Origin: Rhodospirillaceae bacterium
Lineage (GTDB): Bacteria > Pseudomonadota > Alphaproteobacteria > Rhodospirillales > Casp-alpha2
Length of the DNA stretch: 64,000 nt
NCBI GenBank assembly: GCA_016845145.1
Contig: JAERTE010000136.1
Span: forward strand, 1 to 64,000
Reading direction: 5' to 3'
Made by a program: the position numbers and the translations under genes. Under the pieces are notes generated by a model that saw only the letters and a list, made by a program, of their open reading frames with translations, ran no database searches and had not been told where the DNA came from. Positions 6,278-23,760 of this stretch are shown here, in pieces (positions within the stretch are counted from its first letter, which is position 1; each line of letters starts with the position of its first letter).

Positions 6278-6356
<79 letters not shown>

Positions 6357-6503: not shown

Positions 6504-7928
6504 TTGATCTTGGGCAGACCACCGGGACAGAACTCAATCGTAATTAAGGAAGGTCTGCATATCTATCTTCGAGGCAAGACCTGGTGGGCATATATAAAAA
6601 CTGACGATCTAAAAGCGCCCGTCCGAAAAACTCTGAAGACCAGCGATGCCACGATTGCCCGGCAGAAAGCTTGGGAAATCTACGACGAAGTTCGGCATCG
6701 GCAAATGTCTGGTCGATCGGTTACTAAGACAGACTTTTCTAAATTGGCGTCAGATTATCTAGCCAGCATGGGCAACAAAGGTTCGGCGCAGTATCACGCG
6801 GATACGATTGAGCGACATCTAAAGCCTTTCTTCTCTGTGCATGTCTCAGATTTCGGTTTGATCACCAATTCCAATATCGTCGATTACCAACAATGGCGAC
6901 GAGCTAAACCGACGGCATCTGGCAGTTCTCCGAAAGACACGACACTTAATCGAGAAAGCGTTGTTCTCCGTGGTTTGATCAAGCACGCAGTCAAGCGAGG
7001 CTTTTTATCTAAGGATGCGGCACCGGATGTACCTTTGCTTAAAACGGAAGCTGCTCGGCGTCCTGAGTTTTCACGCGATGAACTGGCTGAGTTGCTAAAA
7101 AAAGCCGAGGCCCGGATCAGCAAAACAGATCACACCTCAACAAAGAAAAGCCGCCAGCTGCTGTTCGACTGGATCGTTGTCATGGCCAATTCTGGATTGC
7201 GGCCAGAAGAGAGCCTCAAGCTGACCTGGGGTGATGTGCATTTGCAATCGAACAAGCCTTATATTCACGTTCCTGTCGCTAAATCGAAACGGCGCAAGGC
7301 TCGCAATTGTTATCCCATGCCTGATGCCATTGACCAGTTGCGGTCATTAAAGGCGAGGCTTGGTGATGAACTGAAAGCCCATGGTCGGAAGTTAAAAGGC
7401 ACTGATCCGGTTTTTGCCAATTGGAATGGCAAGCAACTTGTTCAGATCAAGAGTTTCATTACGGCGTTCTCCGGCTTGCTAGATGCTTGTTCATTCCCCC
7501 GAGAAAAAGCCGATGGTGTTCTATCACCAGAAAGCCTACGGCATACATATGCGACGATGAGGTTGGAGGAAGGCGTAGATCAACATCGACTGGCCGATAA
7601 TATGGGAACCAGCGCCAAGATGATCCAAGCTCATTATGGCCATATTACCCTGGGTCATTTTCATGGTGAGTTGACCAAAACCAAAGATCAGCAGGTCAGC
7701 AATAATGCTTCCGCCGATTTGTCTGCCATCAGCCAAAAGTTTGATGAAGTGGTCGACGCACTGCGCCAGGACAAGCAAGAGACATTAGAAGAAATTGGTC
7801 GGCGTTATGTTCTGCAAAGGTGGGAAGAAGAGCATGGCCATCCGCCGTCCGAAGAAGATGCTGAGATTGTCGATGGGCTGGTGCTGTTATGGATCAAGCA
7901 CGATGGCAAAGACCCGTTCCGCCCCTGA
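6504..7928 (+). CDS. Tyrosine recombinase / phage-type integrase
   Basis: SGLRPEESLKLTWGD (Arg), SLRHTYATM (HxxR-type box), ...MIQAHYGH; adjacent to tRNA att site. Confidence 0.93.
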   Translation: MILGRPPGQNSIVIKEGLHIYLRGKTWWAYIKTDDLKAPVRKTLKTSDATIARQKAWEIYDEVRHRQMSGRSVTKTDFSKLASDYLASMGNKGSAQYHADTIERHLKPFFSVHVSDFGLITNSNIVDYQQWRRAKPTASGSSPKDTTLNRESVVLRGLIKHAVKRGFLSKDAAPDVPLLKTEAARRPEFSRDELAELLKKAEARISKTDHTSTKKSRQLLFDWIVVMANSGLRPEESLKLTWGDVHLQSNKPYIHVPVAKSKRRKARNCYPMPDAIDQLRSLKARLGDELKAHGRKLKGTDPVFANWNGKQLVQIKSFITAFSGLLDACSFPREKADGVLSPESLRHTYATMRLEEGVDQHRLADNMGTSAKMIQAHYGHITLGHFHGELTKTKDQQVSNNASADLSAISQKFDEVVDALRQDKQETLEEIGRRYVLQRWEEEHGHPPSEEDAEIVDGLVLLWIKHDGKDPFRP

Positions 7929-7950
7929 TATCTTACGTCACGTAAGATAT
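7928..7950. promoter_or_regulatory. Perfect palindrome ATATCTTACGT-C-ACGTAAGATAT (motif copy A)
   Basis: 11-bp perfect inverted repeat, 1-nt centre; related copies elsewhere in the island. Confidence 0.7.
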
Positions 7951-8045: not shown

Positions 8046-8789
8046 TTAGGTTACTCGCACATCCATCTTCTCAGGCTTCGCTTGCTCGCGCAGGCCAACG
8101 TACTCACGGAACAAATCCGTAGAAATCAGGTCCATCGTCTTTCGGGTGTTATCACGGTTCCAGCGCCTGCCATCGACCGTCATGTAGTATTCGCTGTTGA
8201 GCACCTCGGCGATCTTACGCGGCTTAAGATCGAGGTTCGCTTGGATGACTTTATATATAGGGGCCACACCATCGTAGAGATGCTTGAAGTTCTTCAGCCG
8301 TTTCGTGCCAACCTTGTTTTCTCGCTGCCAAATGCTGATCGGATCGTCTGGTATTCTGGGTTTTCGTTTTGCTCGTGTCCGTCGATACCGAAAATCATAA
8401 AGCTCAAATCTGGCGTGCCGTTCGATAGCTTCAATCGTTTCACGCGCTGCTGGGATTGGGACCATTTTGAATGGCAAAGGTTTATTGGTCGCTGATTGAA
8501 CATCATGGTTCTTAGCCACATCAGAGAACACGGGATTTCGGCGAAGACGGCCAATGTCGATATACAGCAGATCAACTTTCTCGCGCTTGCACCGTTTCAA
8601 GGCTTTTGAGAGGACAAGAGCTCCCGTCTTGTTAGCGATGCTGAACTTCTGATCTTCGCTGTAAGTGTCAATTAGCTCGTAGCCCTCGGCTTCCGCAAAC
8701 AGCTCCATTTGCTTGCGCTGCAAGACGTGGTCACTGGCCCATTCGCCCATGTATTTTCTGGCTCTTATATAACCGACGGCTTTCTTCAT
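8046..8789 (-). CDS. Serine recombinase (resolvase)-like protein, apparently lacking the catalytic Ser
   Basis: VGYIRARKY...LQRKQMELFAEAEGYELIDTYSED (cf. YxRVS... of resolvases), C-terminal recombinase-like region; start at MKKAVGY inferred. Confidence 0.65.
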   Translation of the reverse strand: MKKAVGYIRARKYMGEWASDHVLQRKQMELFAEAEGYELIDTYSEDQKFSIANKTGALVLSKALKRCKREKVDLLYIDIGRLRRNPVFSDVAKNHDVQSATNKPLPFKMVPIPAARETIEAIERHARFELYDFRYRRTRAKRKPRIPDDPISIWQRENKVGTKRLKNFKHLYDGVAPIYKVIQANLDLKPRKIAEVLNSEYYMTVDGRRWNRDNTRKTMDLISTDLFREYVGLREQAKPEKMDVRVT

Positions 8790-11901: not shown

Positions 11902-11922
11902 TTCTTACGTGACTTAAGATAA
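11902..11922. promoter_or_regulatory. Palindrome-family motif copy B, upstream of Rep-like gene
   Basis: TTCTTACGTGACTTAAGATAA, 17/21 identical to copy A. Confidence 0.55.
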
Positions 11923-12220: not shown

Positions 12221-12802
12221 GTGCTTATGATGTCCCAAGCCAAGGTTCTCAGTGAACAGGAATTAAAGAGAGTATTAGCCGTTGTGGCCCAAATGGCTCA
12301 TGCCAAACGAAACAGATTGCTGGTGTTGCTGTCGTTCCAAGCTGGTATGCGTGCCGGTGAAATATCTAACTTGAAGATAGATCATGTGCTGAACGCTGAT
12401 GGCTCAGTACGTGACCGTATTCACCTTCAGAACGGTCAAACCAAAGGTGACAAACAACGGACCGTCATTTTGAGCCAGTCGTTGCAGAAAGAGATTTTGA
12501 AATACGTTAATAGTCTAACGGGCTTCCGTCGGAACTCAGATCAGCCTTTGATTATGTCTCAGAAAGGCGGATCGTTTTCGGCTACGACGATGGTGATGCT
12601 GTTTCGTCGTATCTATGACCAAGCTGGTTTGACTGATGCTCGGTCACATTCTGGCCGTCGGTCGTTTATCACAAAGTTGGCAAACAAAGGTGTGTCGGTT
12701 CGTGTCGTGCAAACGCTAGCTGGTCACTCGTCGATGCAGACAACACAGCGGTATATCGACGTGAATGAAGGGATGCTGGTCGAGGCTGTTGAGCTAGCAT
12801 AA
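12221..12802 (+). CDS. Minimal tyrosine recombinase (catalytic domain only)
   Basis: GMRAGEISNLKI, TKGDKQRTV, SHSGRRSFITKL, LAGHSSMQTTQRYID; no N-terminal core-binding domain; GTG start. Confidence 0.88.
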   Translation: MLMMSQAKVLSEQELKRVLAVVAQMAHAKRNRLLVLLSFQAGMRAGEISNLKIDHVLNADGSVRDRIHLQNGQTKGDKQRTVILSQSLQKEILKYVNSLTGFRRNSDQPLIMSQKGGSFSATTMVMLFRRIYDQAGLTDARSHSGRRSFITKLANKGVSVRVVQTLAGHSSMQTTQRYIDVNEGMLVEAVELA

Positions 12803-12857: not shown

Positions 12858-13496
12858 TCACTTTTTTGGTTCATAGAAAAGGCAAAGGGGAAAGTGTCTT
12901 ATGTTGATTTTGACACCTGTCTTTTCGTGATCATGTGTGGAGTGAAACGCGTTAACAACTTCGTTGCAGTTGTCGATTTTGATTGTAGGCCGCTCGTTTT
13001 CTAGCCGCGATTTCCAGGCTAACATTACTTCTGAAATGTTCGGTCGGTAGCTGTAAACCAGAATGCCACCTGTACAGCATTTTGATGTCGCAGCCATGTA
13101 TCGAGTATCTAGTTGCAAGAAGCCCTCCCAAATCCACTGTGGGCTACTTTTGTCCTTTTTGGCCTCGCCGAGCCAGCGATGATTTTGGTGTCCATCGACG
13201 GTGATATCGCAATGCCCACCTGTGGCTTGATCAAAACTCGCATCGAAGCCCATAGAGTTTAGCTGATCAACGATCTCAATCGTGATCTCGTTTTCTTGCC
13301 GGTCCTGGCGGAGTTGAGGATTACGAGCCATTCGCTCCAAGATATCGTCTATCGCCTTATTCACGACTTTGGTGAATTCCTCAGATGTCTCATATGCCAT
13401 CAGTTCAATCAGTAGTCGCTGATTGTATCGAATTGGCATATCAAGGAGGTCTTTGAGGCTAATGTTCGAGACGCTCATTCGTGTCGCCTCCGACAA
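12858..13496 (-). CDS. PD-(D/E)XK-like nuclease candidate
   Basis: GGHCDITVDGHQNHRWLGEAKKDK (D...ExK pattern); overlaps preceding gene by 22 bp. Confidence 0.55.
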   Translation of the reverse strand: MSEATRMSVSNISLKDLLDMPIRYNQRLLIELMAYETSEEFTKVVNKAIDDILERMARNPQLRQDRQENEITIEIVDQLNSMGFDASFDQATGGHCDITVDGHQNHRWLGEAKKDKSSPQWIWEGFLQLDTRYMAATSKCCTGGILVYSYRPNISEVMLAWKSRLENERPTIKIDNCNEVVNAFHSTHDHEKTGVKINIRHFPLCLFYEPKK

Positions 13497-13888
13497 AATT
13501 CCTCACTTGCTGTAAAGAACGGGTAGATAACATCTTCAAAATTTTCCACGCGTTCGCCTGTTTCCGGATGGAAGAATTCACCAGTCGCTATAGCTTCCAT
13601 CATCTCGCCTTTTTCGATCTCATGTTCTTCATCATCTTCATCGACAAAAAAGAATCCTGCATCGAAAGCGTGAATTTTTGCGCCTGACAGAAAGGTGACC
13701 GCCTCAACTAGCTCACTGCTGACTTCTTGGGCGCCGCAAGCGTTAGCAAAATCTCTGTAGGTCAAGAGTGCGAGCTCTTCATTTGACGTCTTTGATGCAA
13801 ACGAGATTATGGCCGAACAGAAGTCAGCCTGAGGTTTCTCACCCCAGGTTTCTTCAATCCACCCCTGTATCGTTGCTAAATAACTCAT
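13475..13888 (-). CDS. Small acidic hypothetical protein
   Basis: 137 aa, FFFVDEDDEEHEIEKGE; packed between neighbours in same operon. Confidence 0.7.
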   Translation of the reverse strand: MSYLATIQGWIEETWGEKPQADFCSAIISFASKTSNEELALLTYRDFANACGAQEVSSELVEAVTFLSGAKIHAFDAGFFFVDEDDEEHEIEKGEMMEAIATGEFFHPETGERVENFEDVIYPFFTASEEFCRRRHE

Positions 13889-13891
13889 CCG

Positions 13892-14944
13892 CTAAACATG
13901 ATTAGAAATGCGCGTTATTACATCTTGAAACTGTTCAGTTGTCGCACATCCGCGAACAATCACTTCTGTTAACACTGGAGACGCAGAATGTAACTGCCGC
14001 ACCGTACTGTTGAGCGAGGCTTCAATAGGAGTTGATAAACCGCCAATATTAGACTTCCAACGAACGCTAATCCTAAATGGATCAATTTTTCCTGCGACCG
14101 CCGCTGAGCCAGCTTCGTGATAAATCTCCGTCCGAAGGTCGAGGTTCTTTTTCCTCATTTTCTCATGCTTGATTGAAGCCGTTCGGGTTGTAAAAGCCAT
14201 CTCGACTACAGTACCTTCGCTAGGGTCTTTGTAGATTTTATCGATTGCACCAAAAATATTCATGCCCTCGGTCAAAGCCTCAACTCCAAGCGTGTTATTC
14301 ACCGTCACAGCAAGCTTAGAGTGAGCCACCGACGAATATTCAGTGGGCATGTCCTTCGGACTATCAACCCGAGCGAGGACGACGTTTCCTGATCTTGGAA
14401 TGCTGATTGCGTCAACCATGTGTCGATAACCTCTACGAACGGTGATGATTTCATCAACATCTCCAAACTCCGCACGCGCATCCTCGCTGAGATCAGATGA
14501 CGAGAGCTTTTCTCGGATTTCGATCATTCTTTTGGACGAAAATTCGAGTACGGTCTCGTCTGCGTCGAACGATATATTGACCAGGTGCGGCTCTAGATCA
14601 TCGACTGTTTCAAGATCTGATTGATCCATTAAGAACGGATAAATTTCTTTAAACTCACTACTGGGAACGCTTGCAGCTGATATAGCTTCACGAAGTTGAT
14701 CGATTTCGTGTGGATCGATTTCATAAAGACGAACGCTTTTCTCTCCACATCGCAAATGCTGCTCATAGAGTGATTGAGCATCCGATTGAGCACCCACGGG
14801 TACTCCCCCCTGACTATCTTCCAAGCTTCTGAATTTCTCGACAGTGTTCTCCCAGCCTTGACCAACTGCTATTCCTGAAGATTTAAGAATTGCCCGACCG
14901 ACCGTTAACGGCATCCGACTTCGCATGCTTGCAATTAAGTCCAC
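13892..14944 (-). CDS. Hypothetical protein (350 aa), first gene of the distal operon block
   Basis: GTG start with gagggggaaat RBS; 3 bp from next gene; no family recognised. Confidence 0.75.
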   Translation of the reverse strand: MDLIASMRSRMPLTVGRAILKSSGIAVGQGWENTVEKFRSLEDSQGGVPVGAQSDAQSLYEQHLRCGEKSVRLYEIDPHEIDQLREAISAASVPSSEFKEIYPFLMDQSDLETVDDLEPHLVNISFDADETVLEFSSKRMIEIREKLSSSDLSEDARAEFGDVDEIITVRRGYRHMVDAISIPRSGNVVLARVDSPKDMPTEYSSVAHSKLAVTVNNTLGVEALTEGMNIFGAIDKIYKDPSEGTVVEMAFTTRTASIKHEKMRKKNLDLRTEIYHEAGSAAVAGKIDPFRISVRWKSNIGGLSTPIEASLNSTVRQLHSASPVLTEVIVRGCATTEQFQDVITRISNHV

Positions 14945-15053
14945 TTTATATTTCCCCCTCTCTCGATTCTGAGTGCCTTGTTAGTCCCAGCCCTTCTTAG
15001 CAGGTCATTTGTTCATTAGGCTTTGCCTGTTCCAATAGCTTTCGAATTTCTAA

Positions 15054-17591
15054 TTATTCCATCGCAACTACTGTGTCATACAATCCATAATGAGATAGAT
15101 CGGAGTGGCTCTCGACCCCCGTATATCTGAGCGAGGCATCTTCGTAGCGCCTAAAGGCGAATACCGCCTGATTCATTTGTTCAGTGTTGAACACCTTGAG
15201 GCGCACGAGCAAATGAAAGTCCTCGACGGTTAAACCGGTGACGGCAAGAAACAGTTCCGGCTCAAGCTTGGTAATCACATCTTGGAGCGTGTTTTCTCGG
15301 AAGTCAGTCAGATACATGAAGGCGGGAATACGTGTCGCAAATTTGATGAGCTTCTCCTGTACCATTTTGCGTTTGGACTTGTATTCTTTCTCTTCGGCTG
15401 TGAGTTCCTTTTTCTCTCGGTCAGAGAGATCGCCTTCCTTGCCCTTCTTCTTGAGTTCTTTGACTTTGTCGCTCTTGTTGATGATCGTCTCAATGATATT
15501 GTCACCAAGTGAGCGCCATCCCTCAATACGTTCAACCGCAGCAATAGCCTCAGGGTTATCCATGATACGGCGCAAGGTGTCGTTATCGACATTGACCAGC
15601 AACGCGCTTTCCCATTTTCGGGCCAAGAGTGTTGCCGACGTTCCAGCCATCGCAATATCCAGAATGCCGCCAGCGTCAATCTGGGTCATGTTCGCGCCGT
15701 CATAGGCTAATACAGGCAGAAACGATACAAGCTCCTTCACGGCGTTTTCCGGGTTTGACTCGTTTGGTGAGAGACCGATTCCATATTCTGAAAGTTGGCG
15801 AAGTGCTCGTGTTGGCGCGAAATCAAAGACAAAGCATACGGGTTTGAGGATTTCTTCTTCGTTTGGATCATCGCCATTGGGGTTTTTGATGGACCAAGGT
15901 GATTGAACTCGGAACGCGGCTTGGAAGTATGTTTCAGGTGATTTAAGATTACGGAGCATCAAGATTGAAGACCACTGCTTGACCGTAATCCCCGTCGTAA
16001 GCTTTCCGCACGACAGCGTGATCGTCTTTGTATCGAACCCGTTACCAATCGCCTTGCGGACAGGCGGCACTGCGCTAAGACCAATTCCAGCAGAAACGCC
16101 AGCTGCTACGACAACCTCATAGTCGTGCCAGAAGGTGTTCTGCTTTTCTTGCAGCAGATTTGCCATTGCATGACAGGACGCAACATTCGGCATGAACCAG
16201 AATGAGTGTTGAAGATACGGCAACAAGCGAACATCCGAATATGGGAATGGTGGCCGTGTACCAGTTTTTAGGGCTTCAACAACATTAGGCGCGTACTGCC
16301 CCCGGATGATATCCAGCCACTTCTGTACGTCATTCTTGTATTTGAACTTGGCGGTATCACCTTCACCCGAGGCCGAAAAAAACTCGTTCAGGTCAAATTC
16401 GTCAAACTCTCCTGCACTCGCTACGGCCAATAATTCGTCTGGCATCTGATATGTCAGGAGACGCATTTGAGGCAGCGCGCCATATGGATTCCATTTATCG
16501 GGATGTTTAGCAGCGAATTCGGCCTTGGCACGTTGTTCGTCGGTGTAGGTCCAATTGAAGATTTGCTCTTCAATAAACTCGCCGGTAGCTAAGGCTTTAA
16601 ATGGAGTGCCAGACAGATACAGGTATGCTTTGGTGGTAATTGGCAGGAAGTCAGTTTCCTTTTCCGACACGACCATCAGGTCTTCGTTTACGCCCTCAAG
16701 CGCTGGATCGTATTCAAGCTTTGCCTCTTTCTTGAATACCTTTTCATCCTCTCCTTCGAACAATTCCTTTGCTGTGTCCCGCCAAGCGCCGAAATGATAT
16801 TCGTCGAAGATTACAAGGTCCCAATTGACCAAGTGGAGCCATTCATTCTTCGGCTTGATGTTTCCAGCTTTGTCGCGGCCCAAAAGGTCTTGGAAGGAGC
16901 CGAAATAGACGACGTGGCGTTTCTCTTCGACTTTGCTTAGATCAACGCCCGATGACGTGGACATATACTCCCACCCATCGAAGTCTACGTGGCTCTCTAG
17001 GTCTGTTTGCCATGCATCTTCAACGGCGGGTTTGAACGTCACAACAAGGACGCGTTTCGCTCCCATTCGTTTGGCAAGCTGGTACGAAGTAAAAGTCTTC
17101 CCGAACCGCATCTTCGCATTCCATAAGAAACGAGGAACTGCGTGCATGTCCTCCGACCAACGCGAATGGAAATACGAATGCGTTACCTCGACCGCCTCAG
17201 CTTGTTCACGACGCATCGGGAAGGTTTGGTGGTGCGTTCCGGTATATCTAGCACCTGTTCTTAATTCGGTTAGGACTGTTTTGACGTCCTCAACCGAGCA
17301 GCGCATCCATTCCAAATCCGTGTTTTCAAAACCTTTTTGGATTAGTGCAGCGCGAACCTCGTGATCCGAAAATACACTTCCATCCTCTCGCTCAGCGAGT
17401 TCATCTAACTCGATCTTGTAGTTCTTGATCGCTGCCGTCTTGAGTTGTTCTGCAACACGTCGCTTCACATCACGCGTAGTTTGCCCAACTTTCAACAAAC
17501 CATCGTGCGCATCATCAGCAATCGAGTAAGCGTAGACCCGTAGCCTAACCTCCTTCTTAGGTGTTAAAATCTCCTCAATGGCTACCGTCAT
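15054..17591 (-). CDS. DEAD/DEAH-type helicase with N-terminal GIY-YIG/T5orf172-like domain
   Basis: VYAYSIADDAHDGLLKVGQTTRDVKRRVAEQL; WNAKMRFGKTFTSYQLA (Walker A); VIFDEYHFGAWRD; LYLSGTPFKAL. Confidence 0.85.
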   Translation of the reverse strand: MTVAIEEILTPKKEVRLRVYAYSIADDAHDGLLKVGQTTRDVKRRVAEQLKTAAIKNYKIELDELAEREDGSVFSDHEVRAALIQKGFENTDLEWMRCSVEDVKTVLTELRTGARYTGTHHQTFPMRREQAEAVEVTHSYFHSRWSEDMHAVPRFLWNAKMRFGKTFTSYQLAKRMGAKRVLVVTFKPAVEDAWQTDLESHVDFDGWEYMSTSSGVDLSKVEEKRHVVYFGSFQDLLGRDKAGNIKPKNEWLHLVNWDLVIFDEYHFGAWRDTAKELFEGEDEKVFKKEAKLEYDPALEGVNEDLMVVSEKETDFLPITTKAYLYLSGTPFKALATGEFIEEQIFNWTYTDEQRAKAEFAAKHPDKWNPYGALPQMRLLTYQMPDELLAVASAGEFDEFDLNEFFSASGEGDTAKFKYKNDVQKWLDIIRGQYAPNVVEALKTGTRPPFPYSDVRLLPYLQHSFWFMPNVASCHAMANLLQEKQNTFWHDYEVVVAAGVSAGIGLSAVPPVRKAIGNGFDTKTITLSCGKLTTGITVKQWSSILMLRNLKSPETYFQAAFRVQSPWSIKNPNGDDPNEEEILKPVCFVFDFAPTRALRQLSEYGIGLSPNESNPENAVKELVSFLPVLAYDGANMTQIDAGGILDIAMAGTSATLLARKWESALLVNVDNDTLRRIMDNPEAIAAVERIEGWRSLGDNIIETIINKSDKVKELKKKGKEGDLSDREKKELTAEEKEYKSKRKMVQEKLIKFATRIPAFMYLTDFRENTLQDVITKLEPELFLAVTGLTVEDFHLLVRLKVFNTEQMNQAVFAFRRYEDASLRYTGVESHSDLSHYGLYDTVVAME

Positions 17592-17625
17592 GAAATTACA
17601 CTTCCTAAAATGGCCCGCTTAGAAA

Positions 17626-19206
17626 TTAGTCATCATGCTTAGCAACTTGGCTTTCGATGTAGGCAATTTCCTCTTCCGATAGGCCGTACCGGCTATAAAG
17701 CTTCTCATCATCCCAAGATTCATCGTAAGAAATATCCGGAACAAATGAATAAACATCGCGGTTTGCGTGCTGCGTAGCTTTACGCAATGACACTAGAAAT
17801 CGGACAAATCTTGTTTTTAGATAAGATGCGTAATTTTCTGCCGAAGCTTCATCTTCAAAACGCCCTGCAACCAAGTACGTCTCGGTACATGCGGTTCCAG
17901 GAGGCGCAATTATAGGCTTGCTGAGAAATTTCGTTTCTACTGCAGCGCTAGTACCTTGGACGGCTGTCATTAGGACCTTCCAAGTATCTACCCACTCACA
18001 ATTCACGACTATCTCACTCCTATGGATCCAAGTAATTTTTTGGGAACCAAATAACTTTATCGGGTTCTCGATCTTTGCAGCGCTGGGTTTTCCGTGGAAG
18101 AAAGTACGTAAGCCAAATGGCTTTCCCGCAGAGACTCTTTGCGCAAGCGTCGGCTCACTCTTTTCTTTCACTTTTTCTAGAATAGGGACCGCCTCGTTTC
18201 GACGAACTAAAACATCATAGTCGTCAAGGTAACGCGAGACTGCGGGTCCAGTTGGCTCGCCATCCCAGAATGTTTGGACTGAACAAGGCCCGTTATAATC
18301 CCGACCCCAAAGAAAGTACGAAATTCCGCCTCTGATTTTAACGCCAGGAAACGCTTCATAGAGCTTTGGAAAATCGACGATGCTATGCATCCTTCGGTCG
18401 GAGAGCATTTTCTTGCGGAATTGATCCAAACCCTTACCCCCGGCCATCCATCGAGAGGGAGTAACAAAGACGGCGTATTGCGGCTCCAGATCCAATGCTT
18501 TTTCAACAAACATCTGATAAATCGGCGCTGCGCTTGATCCATGCCCACCGTCATCAAGCTGATAAGGCGGATTTCCAATTATTACGTCGAACTGCATATT
18601 TTCCCCAAACCAGTTAGCTATTTCAGCCTTTACGTCATCAGTATGTAAAAGAGCATACGCGTGGGTTTCCAAGCCATCTCCTCTATCAAGGACCTTCTGG
18701 CGGGCACCACAATAACTACATTTTCCATCACTCCATGAATGCTCGAGACGCTCGAACCAAATGTTTCCCGCATCTGAGCCAAAACCCCCAACAACCGAGT
18801 GGGGCCCATTCGCATGTTTCGAACAATACACGCTGCGCCGCGCAAGCAAGCTGGTCAGGTAAGTTATCCCGATACCAAATACTTGTTTCGACAACACATG
18901 GTCGACTCGCTCATCGAGATCAGGAAACTCTTCTGAAAGCCCGTCTATTAATCTCGTAGCGATCTCTCGTAAAAACACACCAGATTTTGTGAATGGGTCG
19001 AGAAACCTCAGCGAACTATTAGCCCACAGGTTTTCACCGTCATGATTATTGGCCCACGCTAAGGTCAGAGTCTCAAGCATCTGATTTGCAAACTCTGGCG
19101 GTGTAAAGACTTCGTCGTTCGAGAGATTTGCAATACAAGTTAAAACGTCTGGGTTTCGGCCCCGAAGCGAGAAGCTTGCCTGATTGCTCATTTGGCGCTC
19201 TCCCAT
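17626..19206 (-). CDS. N6-adenine DNA methyltransferase-like (Eco57I-type) with NPPY
   Basis: DEVFTPPEFANQMLE, FLDPFTKSGVFLREIATRL, FDVIIGNPPYQLDDGGHGSSAAPIYQMFVEKAL, internal CSYCGA. Confidence 0.85.
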   Translation of the reverse strand: MGERQMSNQASFSLRGRNPDVLTCIANLSNDEVFTPPEFANQMLETLTLAWANNHDGENLWANSSLRFLDPFTKSGVFLREIATRLIDGLSEEFPDLDERVDHVLSKQVFGIGITYLTSLLARRSVYCSKHANGPHSVVGGFGSDAGNIWFERLEHSWSDGKCSYCGARQKVLDRGDGLETHAYALLHTDDVKAEIANWFGENMQFDVIIGNPPYQLDDGGHGSSAAPIYQMFVEKALDLEPQYAVFVTPSRWMAGGKGLDQFRKKMLSDRRMHSIVDFPKLYEAFPGVKIRGGISYFLWGRDYNGPCSVQTFWDGEPTGPAVSRYLDDYDVLVRRNEAVPILEKVKEKSEPTLAQRVSAGKPFGLRTFFHGKPSAAKIENPIKLFGSQKITWIHRSEIVVNCEWVDTWKVLMTAVQGTSAAVETKFLSKPIIAPPGTACTETYLVAGRFEDEASAENYASYLKTRFVRFLVSLRKATQHANRDVYSFVPDISYDESWDDEKLYSRYGLSEEEIAYIESQVAKHDD

Positions 19207-19853
19207 TCGTTACTTCCACCATCGGCAAGTTCACTCAGTGTCATCGTCGGATAAGTCTTAATCGGCTTAAACAACTCGTGTTTGCCGAGGTGGGCAAACA
19301 AGGAGCCCTCAGCACTGAATGCCGCCGAACCAGTCAGTACATCTAGACGAAAATCACGGCGCTGGAACTTGCCCTTCCCAACGTAGCCCCACTCGGCAAA
19401 TGAAATTGGTTGGCCATCTATCGTTTTCATCGTCATGGCATCACCGTGAACCAAGTTGCATGACAACACAAATGAGGTGGCTTGGTAGACTTCATCATCG
19501 GCGCCCACGGCGAGGTACTCAGCAATAATCTCAAGCAAGTTCGCCCGACACTCGGCAATGTTATCTTCCAGCAACTCGACGCCGTATATACACATTAGGC
19601 CCAATAAGGCGTAATGCCGCTTCTCGAAGTCAGACTTTCTGAACTTCAACTCGACTGCTGCTAGTTTGCGTTTGAGTACGTTGATGAGGAAATTTCCACT
19701 TCCGCATGCGGGCTCTAGAAAGCGCGAGTCGATACGTTCACTTTCCTCCTTCACAAGATCAAGCATGGCCTCAACCAGCCAAGGCGGTGTGAAAACTTCG
19801 CCATGATCAGCTACTCTTTGTTTTGATTTTATTAGGCTCACGGCTCTGTCCAT
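19188..19853 (-). CDS. Short DNA methyltransferase-like protein (motif X/I, no NPPY)
   Basis: GEVFTPPWLVEAMLDLV, SRFLEPACGSGNFLINVLKRKL; 221 aa, no NPPY/DPPY seen. Confidence 0.82.
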   Translation of the reverse strand: MDRAVSLIKSKQRVADHGEVFTPPWLVEAMLDLVKEESERIDSRFLEPACGSGNFLINVLKRKLAAVELKFRKSDFEKRHYALLGLMCIYGVELLEDNIAECRANLLEIIAEYLAVGADDEVYQATSFVLSCNLVHGDAMTMKTIDGQPISFAEWGYVGKGKFQRRDFRLDVLTGSAAFSAEGSLFAHLGKHELFKPIKTYPTMTLSELADGGSNEWESAK

Positions 19854-19857
19854 CCCT

Positions 19858-20880
19858 CTAATCGTCGTCTACCAACGACCAAATCTGTTGCATCGGAAGT
19901 TCGGCTTGCAGCTCCTTTGGGAGGCTTGTGTAGACATCTTGAATTTCTTGGACGAACTCTTCGGCATTCCAGAGGCGTATATTGAAAAAATCTCTTCTGG
20001 CTTCCTCTTCGACGGTTCCCTTGAAACCACCCCACGAAACAAATAGGCCATGCTCAGCGCCGAACTTCTGCATGACCCCTTTCAATTCATCGTAATCCTT
20101 TGAACCAATGGCGGCGTCGCTTGACTTCACCTGAACGCATAGTCGCGGCTCGTCAAATCCCATCGGGCCGCGTCCAGCAAGAATATCAGCTCCTCCATCA
20201 GCGCCTTTTCTTTTGTTGACGCGGACCTCGAAACCCTGTGCACGTAGCACCTCGGCCACAAGTGCTTCCATTTTGTGGCCTTTGAATTTCCGGCCGATAA
20301 AATCGCTGATCTGTTGGCGCGCAACCTGTTCTAAATCGAGAATGTCATCATCGTCAGTGGTAACGCCGCCATCGTCGGGTTGGAGTTTCGACGGGACAGG
20401 CTTTTTGCCAGCGATAACAGCCTTTATACGCTCTTCAGCATCGTTTTTGATAACCCGAAAGACTGTGAGAGCAGACCCGAAAGAATACAAAATATCTTGG
20501 TCAAACGCGCTTCGAGGTATCGGTTCACCGGTCCAGTCGACACGTCGGCTGTGTCTCGCATCCTCGGGATTGTCAGAGATGTACTCGTAACCACCAACGA
20601 CTTTGCCAAATGCTATCGCTGGGCGTGTTTTAAGTGGCAGGGCAAAAATATCTCCGATCTCAAACGACTTAAGGAAATTGAACACCTGCCCCGCATTGTT
20701 GCGTGCGGTTCCGGGTTTCATATCTGGATAGGTCTCTTCCACATAAGCCAGCACCTCATCGCGAGTGTTGATGTGGGATAAATTGCCAAGCTCCCCCCAG
20801 CCGATAAACGCACGACCGCCCTCAAGAGCTAAGTTCTCTCGCTCACCATATTTCCCAGCTCTCGCTACCCAAACCGTCAT
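19858..20880 (-). CDS. Mrr-like restriction endonuclease with N-terminal PUA/EVE-like region
   Basis: N-term VWVARAGKYGERENLALEGGRAFIGWGELGNLSH; C-term MEALVAEVLRAQGFEVRVNKRKGADGGADILA...LCVQVKS. Confidence 0.8.
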   Translation of the reverse strand: MTVWVARAGKYGERENLALEGGRAFIGWGELGNLSHINTRDEVLAYVEETYPDMKPGTARNNAGQVFNFLKSFEIGDIFALPLKTRPAIAFGKVVGGYEYISDNPEDARHSRRVDWTGEPIPRSAFDQDILYSFGSALTVFRVIKNDAEERIKAVIAGKKPVPSKLQPDDGGVTTDDDDILDLEQVARQQISDFIGRKFKGHKMEALVAEVLRAQGFEVRVNKRKGADGGADILAGRGPMGFDEPRLCVQVKSSDAAIGSKDYDELKGVMQKFGAEHGLFVSWGGFKGTVEEEARRDFFNIRLWNAEEFVQEIQDVYTSLPKELQAELPMQQIWSLVDDD

Positions 20881-21089
20881 AACCGCGCTCCCTTGGCCTC
20901 ATTCGCTGGCTTCTGCTCATCAATCCATTTCTCAATTTCCGTTGAGCGAAACCGCCAGGAACCACCAACTTTAAACCCAGGGATTTTACCCTCAGCCGCT
21001 AGACGGTAGGCAGTTTTCTCTTTGATCCTCAAGTACTCAGCCACTTCTTTGATGGTTAGGATGTCATCGGTCATGGGCAGACTCTTCAA
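20877..21089 (-). CDS. Excisionase/MerR-like helix-turn-helix DNA-binding protein
   Basis: DILTIKEVAEYLRIKEKTAYRLAAEGKIPGFKVGGSWRFRSTEIEKWI; 4-bp overlap with next gene. Confidence 0.85.
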   Translation of the reverse strand: MKSLPMTDDILTIKEVAEYLRIKEKTAYRLAAEGKIPGFKVGGSWRFRSTEIEKWIDEQKPANEAKGARL

Positions 21090-21250: not shown

Positions 21251-21271
21251 ATCTCATCTGACTTAAGATAT
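21251..21271. promoter_or_regulatory. Palindrome-family motif copy C, upstream of HTH-led operon
   Basis: ATCTCATCTGACTTAAGATAT, 16/21 identical to copy A. Confidence 0.45.
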
Positions 21272-22183: not shown

Positions 22184-22357
22184 GACCTGGAAGCCCGCCA
22201 ACCAACGTCGCAAAAGATGTAAACCCTAAGTGCTCACGGCAAAACGTTCCGAGCCACATCCCAGAAAATGATTGCTAGGAAGTGACTACCATTGGCTGTA
22301 TTTCGAATAACTATAGGCGAGAAAGCCTGCCAGTTAACAGCCAATAGGAGCTACAAA

Positions 22358-22801
22358 ATGTCTGCATTGAATAAACTCAAAATCGTTGCTGATATCGATA
22401 ACTCGAAGATCGACCCGGTAGCCGTTGCACGTGGTCGATTGCTTGGCCATCTCGGTGAGCAATTGAAAGCTGCCGAAGCGATGGTCGACGGCACCGAATA
22501 CCGGGTCAAACGTCAACGCTGGGAAACCAACGAAGAGACCGGCGAAAAAGTACGAAAAGAAATCGAAATGCCGCTTCGCAAATGGTACTGGCGCGATGCT
22601 CTTGGTCAGGTTCGGTTTTGCCTCAAGGTCGGCAATAAGCGTTTGCCGCTGAAGGGTGAGGATACGAATATCATCGTCGGCGAAGACACCAAACTACCGG
22701 AGATTATCCAAACCTGCATCAAGGCCGTTGAAGCTGGCGAGTTGGACCAGGCTATTGATCAGGTTGTTAAGGCCAGAAAGCCGATCTCCAAAAAACATTA
22801 A
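22358..22801 (+). CDS. Small island protein, paralogue 1
   Basis: MSALNKLKI...LRKWYWRDALG...KRLPLKGEDTNI...EAGELDQA; AGGAG RBS; start internal to supplied ORF. Confidence 0.75.
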   Translation: MSALNKLKIVADIDNSKIDPVAVARGRLLGHLGEQLKAAEAMVDGTEYRVKRQRWETNEETGEKVRKEIEMPLRKWYWRDALGQVRFCLKVGNKRLPLKGEDTNIIVGEDTKLPEIIQTCIKAVEAGELDQAIDQVVKARKPISKKH

Positions 22802-23019: not shown

Positions 23020-23040
23020 TTCTTACGTCAAGTTAGATAC
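23020..23040. promoter_or_regulatory. Palindrome-family motif copy D, upstream of paralogue 2
   Basis: TTCTTACGTCAAGTTAGATAC, 17/21 identical to copy A. Confidence 0.5.
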
Positions 23041-23146: not shown

Positions 23147-23602
23147 ATGGCTGTCTTGAACAAACTCAAAATCAGCAAGAAAACAAAATCTAACCAACAT
23201 GAACCCACAGAACAGCGGCTTCGTCGGATGCTGCGGGAGAAGCTCATGGAACAACGTGAGATGGTGGAAGCCGAGCTACAGGGAAAGCAACTGGTCAAAA
23301 CCACGACCAAGTACATTCCCAACAAAGTGACTGGTGAGCTGATCCAGCAAGAAGTCCCACGTCAATTAAGAAAATGGTACTGGAAAGAACCAGACGGAAC
23401 CGTTTGCATTCATTTGCTCTATGGCAGCATCAAGCTACCGATCAACGGTGAGAACACGACCATCGAGATCAAGAGCCTTGATGAACTACCGAAAACCATT
23501 GGCGTTCTAATGGAAGCGATTGATGCTGGCGAACTCGACGATGCCTTGTTGGCGGCAATGGAGGAGAGAAAGAAGATCATGCGTGGAATTAAGAAAGCTT
23601 GA
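23147..23602 (+). CDS. Small island protein, paralogue 2
   Basis: MAVLNKLKI...LRKWYWKEPDG...IKLPINGENTTI...DAGELDDA; GGAGG RBS. Confidence 0.75.
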   Translation: MAVLNKLKISKKTKSNQHEPTEQRLRRMLREKLMEQREMVEAELQGKQLVKTTTKYIPNKVTGELIQQEVPRQLRKWYWKEPDGTVCIHLLYGSIKLPINGENTTIEIKSLDELPKTIGVLMEAIDAGELDDALLAAMEERKKIMRGIKKA

Positions 23603-23708: not shown

Positions 23709-23760
23709 TACAATGGCATTGTAGAGGTCGTCGGTTCGATTCCGTCCGGCTCCACCATTT
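23709..23760 (+). repeat. attR: 52-bp direct repeat of tRNA-Ala 3' portion
   Basis: Identical to 6305-6356; no 5' half of a tRNA upstream. Confidence 0.96.

What the first reader, a model, noticed from the sequence alone, without database searches (positions are those of the whole stretch)
12858..21089. Candidate undescribed multi-gene defence/RM-like system on the minus strand
Tightly packed order: HTH (20877-21089), PUA/EVE-like+Mrr nuclease (19858-20880), short MTase-like without NPPY (19188-19853), MTase-like with NPPY (17626-19206), GIY-YIG/T5orf172-helicase (15054-17591), then 350-aa unknown (13892-14944), 137-aa acidic unknown (13475-13888) and PD-(D/E)XK-like protein (12858-13496). 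Most junctions overlap or are under ~35 bp. Two nuclease candidates, a nuclease-domain helicase, two non-equivalent MTases and a possible modified-base reader do not match the architecture of type I, II, III, ISP, BREX or DISARM as I know them.
Basis: partly seen in the sequence, partly recalled or inferred. Interest (0 to 1): 0.85.

Follow-up and report, generated by a model that had tools for sequence, protein, structure and literature searches.

The report
Restriction island plus unnamed nuclease trio
The eight genes are not one new defence system but three separate ones side by side in a mobile island: a known kind of restriction-modification system (DrdVI type), a known candidate nuclease gene, and a widespread, apparently undescribed three-gene set with a DNA-cutting enzyme that sits where phages keep their weapons against other phages.

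Summary
All eight ORFs exist as described. They lie in a 17.4-kb low-GC island next to tRNA-Ala with 52-bp att repeats. They are a composite of three modules that never share a locus elsewhere in 221 fetched loci. (1) M1-M2-helicase (15054-19853) is a DrdVI-type restriction-modification system, already known: split 6mA methylase plus GIY-YIG translocase-nuclease. M1 never has NPPY (0/28), M2 always does (30/30). The window's target-recognition region is of another class than DrdVI's. (2) The Mrr protein (19858-20880) is PADLOC candidate PDC-S02, elsewhere often beside type I R-M; the HTH resembles Mad1 just below cut-off. (3) The three genes at 12858-14944 form a strict operon in 47 of 55 nuclease-bearing loci across Pseudomonadota, Cyanobacteriota, plasmids and phages, and sit in the gpA-gpQ defence hotspot of P2-like prophages. 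They match no Pfam, NCBIfam or PADLOC family and are not '3HP'. The nuclease keeps an intact PD-(D/E)XK site in 35 divergent sequences; it, or its 137-aa winged-helix-like partner, is also attached to NACHT-HEAT, type ISP and MmeI-like proteins. I read the trio as an undescribed anti-phage nuclease system; no phenotype is shown. The single-system reading is not supported.

The parts
20877..21089 (-). 70-aa HTH_17 protein at the head of the operon, Mad1-like, probable regulator (start codon uncertain: TTG 21089 or ATG further in)
   Evidence: HTH_17 1.1e-19; NF047737 79.0 bits against cut-off 80; a similar gene precedes M1 in L022
19858..20880 (-). Mrr-type nuclease, PADLOC candidate PDC-S02; accessory of R-M loci (module B)
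   Evidence: Mrr_cat 1.6e-24; PDC-S02 1e-129 full length; beside type I R-M elsewhere
19188..19853 (-). M1 subunit of a DrdVI-type split 6mA methylase (motifs X and I, no NPPY)
   Evidence: 70.5% identical to M1 of pDrdVI
17626..19206 (-). M2 subunit: NPPY catalytic motif and C-terminal target recognition region
   Evidence: Eco57I 3.2e-35; 30/30 NPPY; C-half varies by class
15054..17591 (-). GIY-YIG (T5orf172) helicase, restriction/translocase subunit of the DrdVI-type system
   Evidence: 76% identical to DrdVI
13892..14944 (-). 350-aa protein, first gene of the trio; probable sensor
   Evidence: phrog_12777 5e-60; conserved trio; AF2 pLDDT 93.2; weak RdgC resemblance
13475..13888 (-). 137-aa winged-helix-like protein, second gene of the trio; probable adaptor
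   Evidence: phrog_11490; C-terminal domain of type ISP and MmeI-like enzymes elsewhere; AF2 pLDDT 96.3
12858..13496 (-). PD-(D/E)XK nuclease, third gene of the trio; probable effector
   Evidence: phrog_9664; invariant E68, D97, E111, K113, Q128 in 35 sequences; fused to NACHT-HEAT proteins
6305..6356 (+). left att repeat, 3' end of tRNA-Ala (6278-6353)
   Evidence: 52 bp, 100% identical to the right copy
23709..23760 (+). right att repeat; end of the island
   Evidence: GC returns to about 0.6 beyond it

Best explanation
The stretch is a composite defence cargo of an integrated island. Module A (M1-M2-helicase) is a DrdVI-type R-M system: M1 and M2 together put 6mA at an asymmetric site chosen by M2's C-terminal region (activity shown by others for DrdVI, inferred here), and the GIY-YIG-helicase subunit translocates from unmethylated sites and cuts (inferred). 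Module B is an Mrr-type PDC-S02 nuclease that rides on R-M loci, with a small HTH regulator at the head of the operon. Module C (350 aa, 137 aa, 212 aa) is an independent three-gene anti-phage system: the 350-aa protein senses invading DNA or its replication (inferred), the 137-aa winged-helix-like protein couples it to the nuclease (inferred from its recurrent fusions), and the PD-(D/E)XK protein then cuts DNA (active site shown by conservation; activity not tested). Whether the cut removes phage DNA or kills the infected cell is open; I lean to the former only slightly.
For: Modules never co-occur in 221 other loci. Module A: same gene order and 71-86% helicase identity on plasmids and viral contigs, among them pDrdVI, with cloned activity of the DrdVI methylase; complementary M1/M2 motifs. 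Module B: PDC-S02, beside type I R-M elsewhere. Module C: strict operon in 47 of 55 loci; gpA-gpQ hotspot of P2-like prophages, a validated defence hotspot; catalytic residues invariant; nuclease fused to NACHT-HEAT; adaptor domain at the C-terminus of a type ISP and an MmeI-like enzyme, with the nuclease gene directly after.
Against: No phenotype, methylome or enzyme assay is at hand for this locus. All eight genes run the same way with small gaps, and no promoter-like site beyond chance separates the modules, so they may be co-transcribed and even cooperate. Hotspot position and fusions are guilt by association. Fetched loci have limited flanks (3-9 kb), so co-occurrence at a distance is not excluded. 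Sensor and adaptor roles are inferred only.
Confidence: 0.78

Rival explanations
1. One integrated eight-gene system: the DrdVI-type methylase and helicase recognise DNA, and the Mrr and PD-(D/E)XK nucleases act as extra effectors.
For: Common strand and tight packing. Related adaptor-nuclease pairs are attached to R-M enzymes elsewhere (L040, L206), and the Mrr protein often sits in R-M loci.
Against: No other locus holds any two of the modules. The trio and the core each work as complete units on small plasmids and phages. The widest gap (109 bp) lies between helicase and trio.
Confidence: 0.08
2. The trio is the known 3HP system, or another system already named in a library or supplement not held here.
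For: Rousset et al. describe a three-gene P2-hotspot system without clear domains that protects against P1: same hotspot, same number of genes.
Against: PADLOC's Hp1, Hp2, Hp3 models (333, 359, 227 positions) hit another P2-hotspot cassette (L141) and not the trio from the window, E. coli-type prophages, Klebsiella, Leclercia or Calothrix. Profile comparison is negative. A 2,634-bp in-frame deletion of a 3Hp operon (PMC13141931) exceeds the trio's 2.1-2.2 kb. NCBIfam (June 2026) and Pfam have no meaningful match.
Confidence: 0.12
3. The trio is not a defence system but serves the mobile element itself: replication, recombination or stability (the 350-aa protein resembling RdgC, the nuclease processing DNA).
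For: Found on phages, plasmids and islands; weak RdgC-like fold of the 350-aa protein; the P2 hotspot also carries non-defence genes such as partition systems.
Against: Sporadic cargo-like presence at a defence hotspot (28 of 5,426 E. coli genomes), also in chromosomes; fusion of the nuclease to NACHT-HEAT and of the adaptor to restriction enzymes fits effectors. No profile similarity to RdgC.
Confidence: 0.15

Closest known systems
DrdVI (Deinococcus wulumuqiensis NEB 479, plasmid pDrdVI: M1.DrdVI, M2.DrdVI, DrdVI) and the MaeIV split methylase
   Same: Gene order M1-M2-helicase; identity 70.5% (M1), 54.5% (M2), 76% (helicase); split methylase motifs; GIY-YIG plus translocase.
   Different: M2's C-terminal region is only 38% identical to DrdVI's and belongs to another class shared with L006, L017 and L030, so the recognition site is probably not GCAGCC.
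PADLOC candidate PDC-S02 (Mrr-type nuclease)
   Same: Full-length match, 1e-129.
   Different: Here between an HTH gene and a DrdVI-type core; elsewhere beside type I R-M or alone.
3HP (Rousset et al. 2022)
   Same: Three genes without annotated domains in the P2-like gpA-gpQ hotspot.
   Different: No sequence or profile similarity to Hp1-Hp3; different gene sizes.
Nuclease-protease pairs repeatedly acquired by unrelated immune systems (PMC12799240)
   Same: Same principle: a nuclease pair that recurs as an add-on to otherwise unrelated immune systems.
   Different: Here the partner is a winged-helix-like protein, no protease is seen, and the sensors include R-M enzymes.
MADS (methylation-associated defence system)
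   Same: HTH resembles Mad1 (79.0 bits, cut-off 80) in front of a methylase.
   Different: Methylase scores 23 bits against a cut-off of 720 for MAD2; no other mad gene is present.

Membership tests
DrdVI-type split-methylase R-M | Adjacent genes M1, M2 and a GIY-YIG helicase in that order | tested here: met
DrdVI-type split-methylase R-M | M1 with motif I but no NPPY; M2 with NPPY and DPxTKSGVF | tested here: met
   0/28 and 30/30 in the family, window included
DrdVI-type split-methylase R-M | 6mA methylation of a short asymmetric site and matching cleavage | not testable with these tools
   Shown for DrdVI methylation by others; no methylome for this genome
Type IIG or type ISP in the strict sense | Restriction and modification in one polypeptide | tested here: not met
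   Three polypeptides; no ISP coupler or Type_ISP_C domain. REBASE authors nevertheless class DrdVI as IIG
BREX / DISARM | pglZ, brxC (BREX) or drmA, drmB (DISARM) among the genes | tested here: not met
   No such family among the PADLOC hits of the eight proteins; only generic MTase similarity to PglX
MADS | MAD2 methylase above its cut-off | tested here: not met
   23.2 bits against 720
PDC-S02 | Full-length match to the PADLOC model | tested here: met
   430.8 bits, residues 1-338 of 340
3HP | Hp1, Hp2 and Hp3 homologues | tested here: not met
   No PADLOC hit for the trio from any source tested; models do hit L141; profile comparison negative
PD-(D/E)XK nucleases (212-aa protein) | Conserved D...E-x-K catalytic residues | tested here: met
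   E68, D97, E111, K113, Q128 invariant over 35 sequences; fold itself not modelled, no Pfam or PDB match
RdgC (350-aa protein) | Same fold and detectable profile similarity | tested here: inconclusive
   Top structural hit in two libraries but TM-scores 0.33-0.39; profile comparison negative
Anti-phage defence system (trio) | Protection against phages | not testable with these tools
   Only position in a defence hotspot and domain fusions

The most novel reading that the evidence does not exclude
The 350aa-137aa-212aa trio is an undescribed anti-phage system found in at least two bacterial phyla and in tailed and PM2-like phages. Its adaptor-nuclease pair is a portable effector unit that R-M enzymes (type ISP, MmeI-like) have also captured, and its nuclease has been fused to NACHT-HEAT sensors, so that one DNase effector serves at least four kinds of sensor, including restriction enzymes.
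Probability: 0.5. Interest if true: 0.8.

Novelty: new variant of a known kind. Interest (0 to 1): 0.6.

Why it matters
It corrects a tempting false 'new system' and shows where the new part is. The trio would be a compact (about 2.1 kb) anti-phage system common enough to recur in a defence hotspot of P2-like prophages, yet absent from the defence, Pfam and NCBIfam libraries at hand. The sharing of its adaptor-nuclease pair with restriction enzymes, and of its nuclease with NACHT proteins, suggests that restriction can be wired to a second effector nuclease, a directly testable idea. For the R-M part, M1/M2 complementarity across phyla, with a swappable target region, gives a clean set for deciphering new recognition sites.

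Tried and rejected
Eight-gene single system: rejected by lack of co-occurrence. MADS: rejected by scores. 3HP: rejected; a first look in phage SopEPhi found only other hotspot genes (PDC-M11, ShosTA). RdgC homology of the 350-aa protein: only weak structural resemblance, profile test negative. Degenerate-pattern scans with the 350-aa and Mrr proteins alone found nothing in viral contigs; an alignment of the nuclease worked. The first nuclease profile was too diverse for a genome-contig scan. PDB sequence searches gave no relatives. Promoter- and terminator-like sites were no more frequent than in shuffles. Literature searches with accession numbers of the E. coli trio found no paper.
Full report
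OBSERVATION. The eight minus-strand ORFs are present exactly as listed. Junctions, from 5' to 3' of the operon, are -4, +4, -19, +34, +109, +3 and -22 bp. The stretch lies inside a low-GC segment (0.45-0.50 against 0.56-0.62 outside). That segment is bounded by a perfect 52-bp direct repeat at 6305-6356 and 23709-23760; the left copy is the 3' part of tRNA-Ala 6278-6353. A 474-aa ORF that reads like a tyrosine integrase starts at 6504, next to the left end (inference, not scanned against Pfam), and a 193-aa integrase-domain ORF lies at 12221-12802. This is an integrated island of 17.4 kb. Partial copies of the repeat near the same tRNA in related genomes fit a used integration site.

MODULE A, 15054-19853. 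Relatives of the helicase occur at 71-86% identity on plasmids and viral contigs from several phyla. The unit that recurs is small MTase, large MTase, helicase. One of these plasmids is pDrdVI of Deinococcus wulumuqiensis NEB 479. [quoted passage not shown] Across the family M1 always has motif I (PACGxGNF type) and never NPPY (0/28). M2 always has NPPY (30/30) and an altered motif I, DPxTKSGVF type. The helicase keeps Walker A, DEYH, SGTPF and motif VI, and the T5orf172 domain. In M2 the C-terminal half varies (38-51% mean pairwise identity) while the N-terminal half and the helicase vary far less. The window's C-half matches L006, L017 and L030 at 65-70% but DrdVI's and the other classes only at 28-41%. 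The window system therefore probably reads another site than GCAGCC. The Enterococcus relatives fuse helicase and M2 into one chain and keep M1 apart.

MODULE B, 19858-21089. The Mrr protein matches PADLOC's PDC-S02 over its full length (1e-129). Homologues stand beside type I R-M genes in Methylomonas, Pseudoalteromonas and Salipiger and in G355, G328, G360 and G122, and near one in G197. Others stand alone. None stands beside a DrdVI-type core. The N-terminal domain has no Pfam or PDB match, so 'EVE-like modified-base reader' stays a guess. The HTH is Mad1-like but misses that cut-off by one bit; a similar gene precedes M1 in L022.

MODULE C, 12858-14944. The 350-, 137- and 212-aa proteins match only PHROGs 12777, 11490 and 9664, all of unknown function. 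tblastn found the trio in order in Calothrix, Pseudomonas, Vibrio and Photobacterium. Profile searches found it in 16 of 16 viral contigs that carry the nuclease, in Pseudomonadota and Cyanobacteriota genomes, on a 6.1-kb Klebsiella plasmid, and in the records of phages KP12, Mcat13 and PM2-like Vibrio phage PQ189315. Of 55 nuclease loci, 47 have all three genes in the same order and strand with almost no spacing in 45. In E. coli it occurs in 28 of 5,426 genomes, and in the two copies read it lies between the replication endonuclease and the portal gene of P2-like prophages. That locus is a validated defence hotspot (PMC9122126; PMC9519451). Five of some 80 P2-like loci fetched by portal similarity carry it, a figure raised by the choice of a portal from a trio-bearing prophage.

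NATURE OF MODULE C. E68, D97, E111, K113 and Q128 of the 212-aa protein are invariant in 35 sequences that are 23-37% identical to the window's, the pattern of an active PD-(D/E)XK nuclease. In Microcoleus, Westiellopsis, Xenococcus and Fischerella the same nuclease is the C-terminal domain of NACHT-HEAT proteins of 995-1204 aa. In Rhizobium phaseoli (L040) the 137-aa domain is the C-terminus of an MmeI-like type IIG enzyme, and in genome G365 (L206) of a 1764-aa type ISP enzyme; in both the nuclease gene follows with a 4-bp overlap. The 137-aa protein is therefore best read as an adaptor that ties the nuclease to a sensor. Its confident AF2 model (pLDDT 96.3) has a winged-helix arrangement with weak matches to winged-helix proteins. 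The 350-aa model (pLDDT 93.2) has RdgC as top hit in two libraries, but TM-scores are below 0.5 and a profile comparison is negative, so DNA binding is only a lead.

NOT 3HP. Rousset et al. found a three-gene system without clear domains in the same hotspot, active against P1. The PADLOC library holds its models (Hp1, Hp2, Hp3); they hit another hotspot cassette (L141), but not the trio from any source tested, and profile comparison agrees. NCBIfam (June 2026) and Pfam give nothing meaningful for other members either. The trio may still be listed, untested, in supplementary tables that I could not open, or named in a library newer than those at hand.

CO-OCCURRENCE. In 221 loci outside the window, 35 hold the helicase, 22 the Mrr protein and 62 the trio; no locus holds two of them. 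In Pseudomonadota samples of 399 genomes each (the window's own genome counted) helicase, Mrr protein and trio nuclease occur in 2, 10 and 7 genomes. The eight-gene order is thus a local assembly, as expected of a defence island.

VERDICT. Observation confirmed. The single-system interpretation is not supported: the R-M core is a known kind, the Mrr gene a known candidate, and the trio an apparently undescribed, widely conserved, probable anti-phage nuclease system. Shown here: gene content, order, conservation, catalytic residues, hotspot position, fusions. Inferred: sensing by the 350-aa protein, adaptor role, DNA cleavage, protection against phages.

Noticed in passing
7931-7949, 8213-8231, 11903-11921, 21252-21270, 23021-23039: Five copies of a 19-nt partly palindromic repeat (TCTTACGTGACTTAAGATA type) dispersed over the island, one about 160 bp upstream of the HTH gene; possible operator of an island regulator.
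   Followed up: no
6305-6356 and 23709-23760: Perfect 52-bp direct repeats, the left one inside tRNA-Ala, delimit a 17.4-kb integrated island with a probable integrase at 6504-7928.
   Followed up: partly
22292-22801 and 23147-23602: Two ORFs (169 and 151 aa) near the right end share a similar start (29 nt, 86% identical) and look like paralogues of unknown function.
   Followed up: no
L159, L161, L169, L172 (cyanobacteria): NACHT-HEAT proteins of 995-1204 aa that end in the trio's PD-(D/E)XK domain.
   Followed up: partly
L206:2990-8913; L040:3669-7573: A type ISP enzyme (1764 aa) and an MmeI-like IIG enzyme (1089 aa) with the trio's 137-aa domain at the C-terminus, each followed by the nuclease gene: restriction enzymes with a possible second effector.
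   Followed up: partly
L030:736-11559 (Corynebacterium crudilactis pCRULAC2): A DrdVI-type operon split between M2 and helicase by Tn3/IS3-type elements with two aminoglycoside phosphotransferase genes.
   Followed up: no
L141:7086-9926: A 3HP-like cassette (233, 354, 354 aa) in a P2-like hotspot that scores well on Hp1 and Hp2 and more weakly on Hp3.
   Followed up: no
L039:8142-9419: In an Acinetobacter copy of the trio about 1.3 kb is inserted between the adaptor and nuclease genes; content not examined.
   Followed up: no
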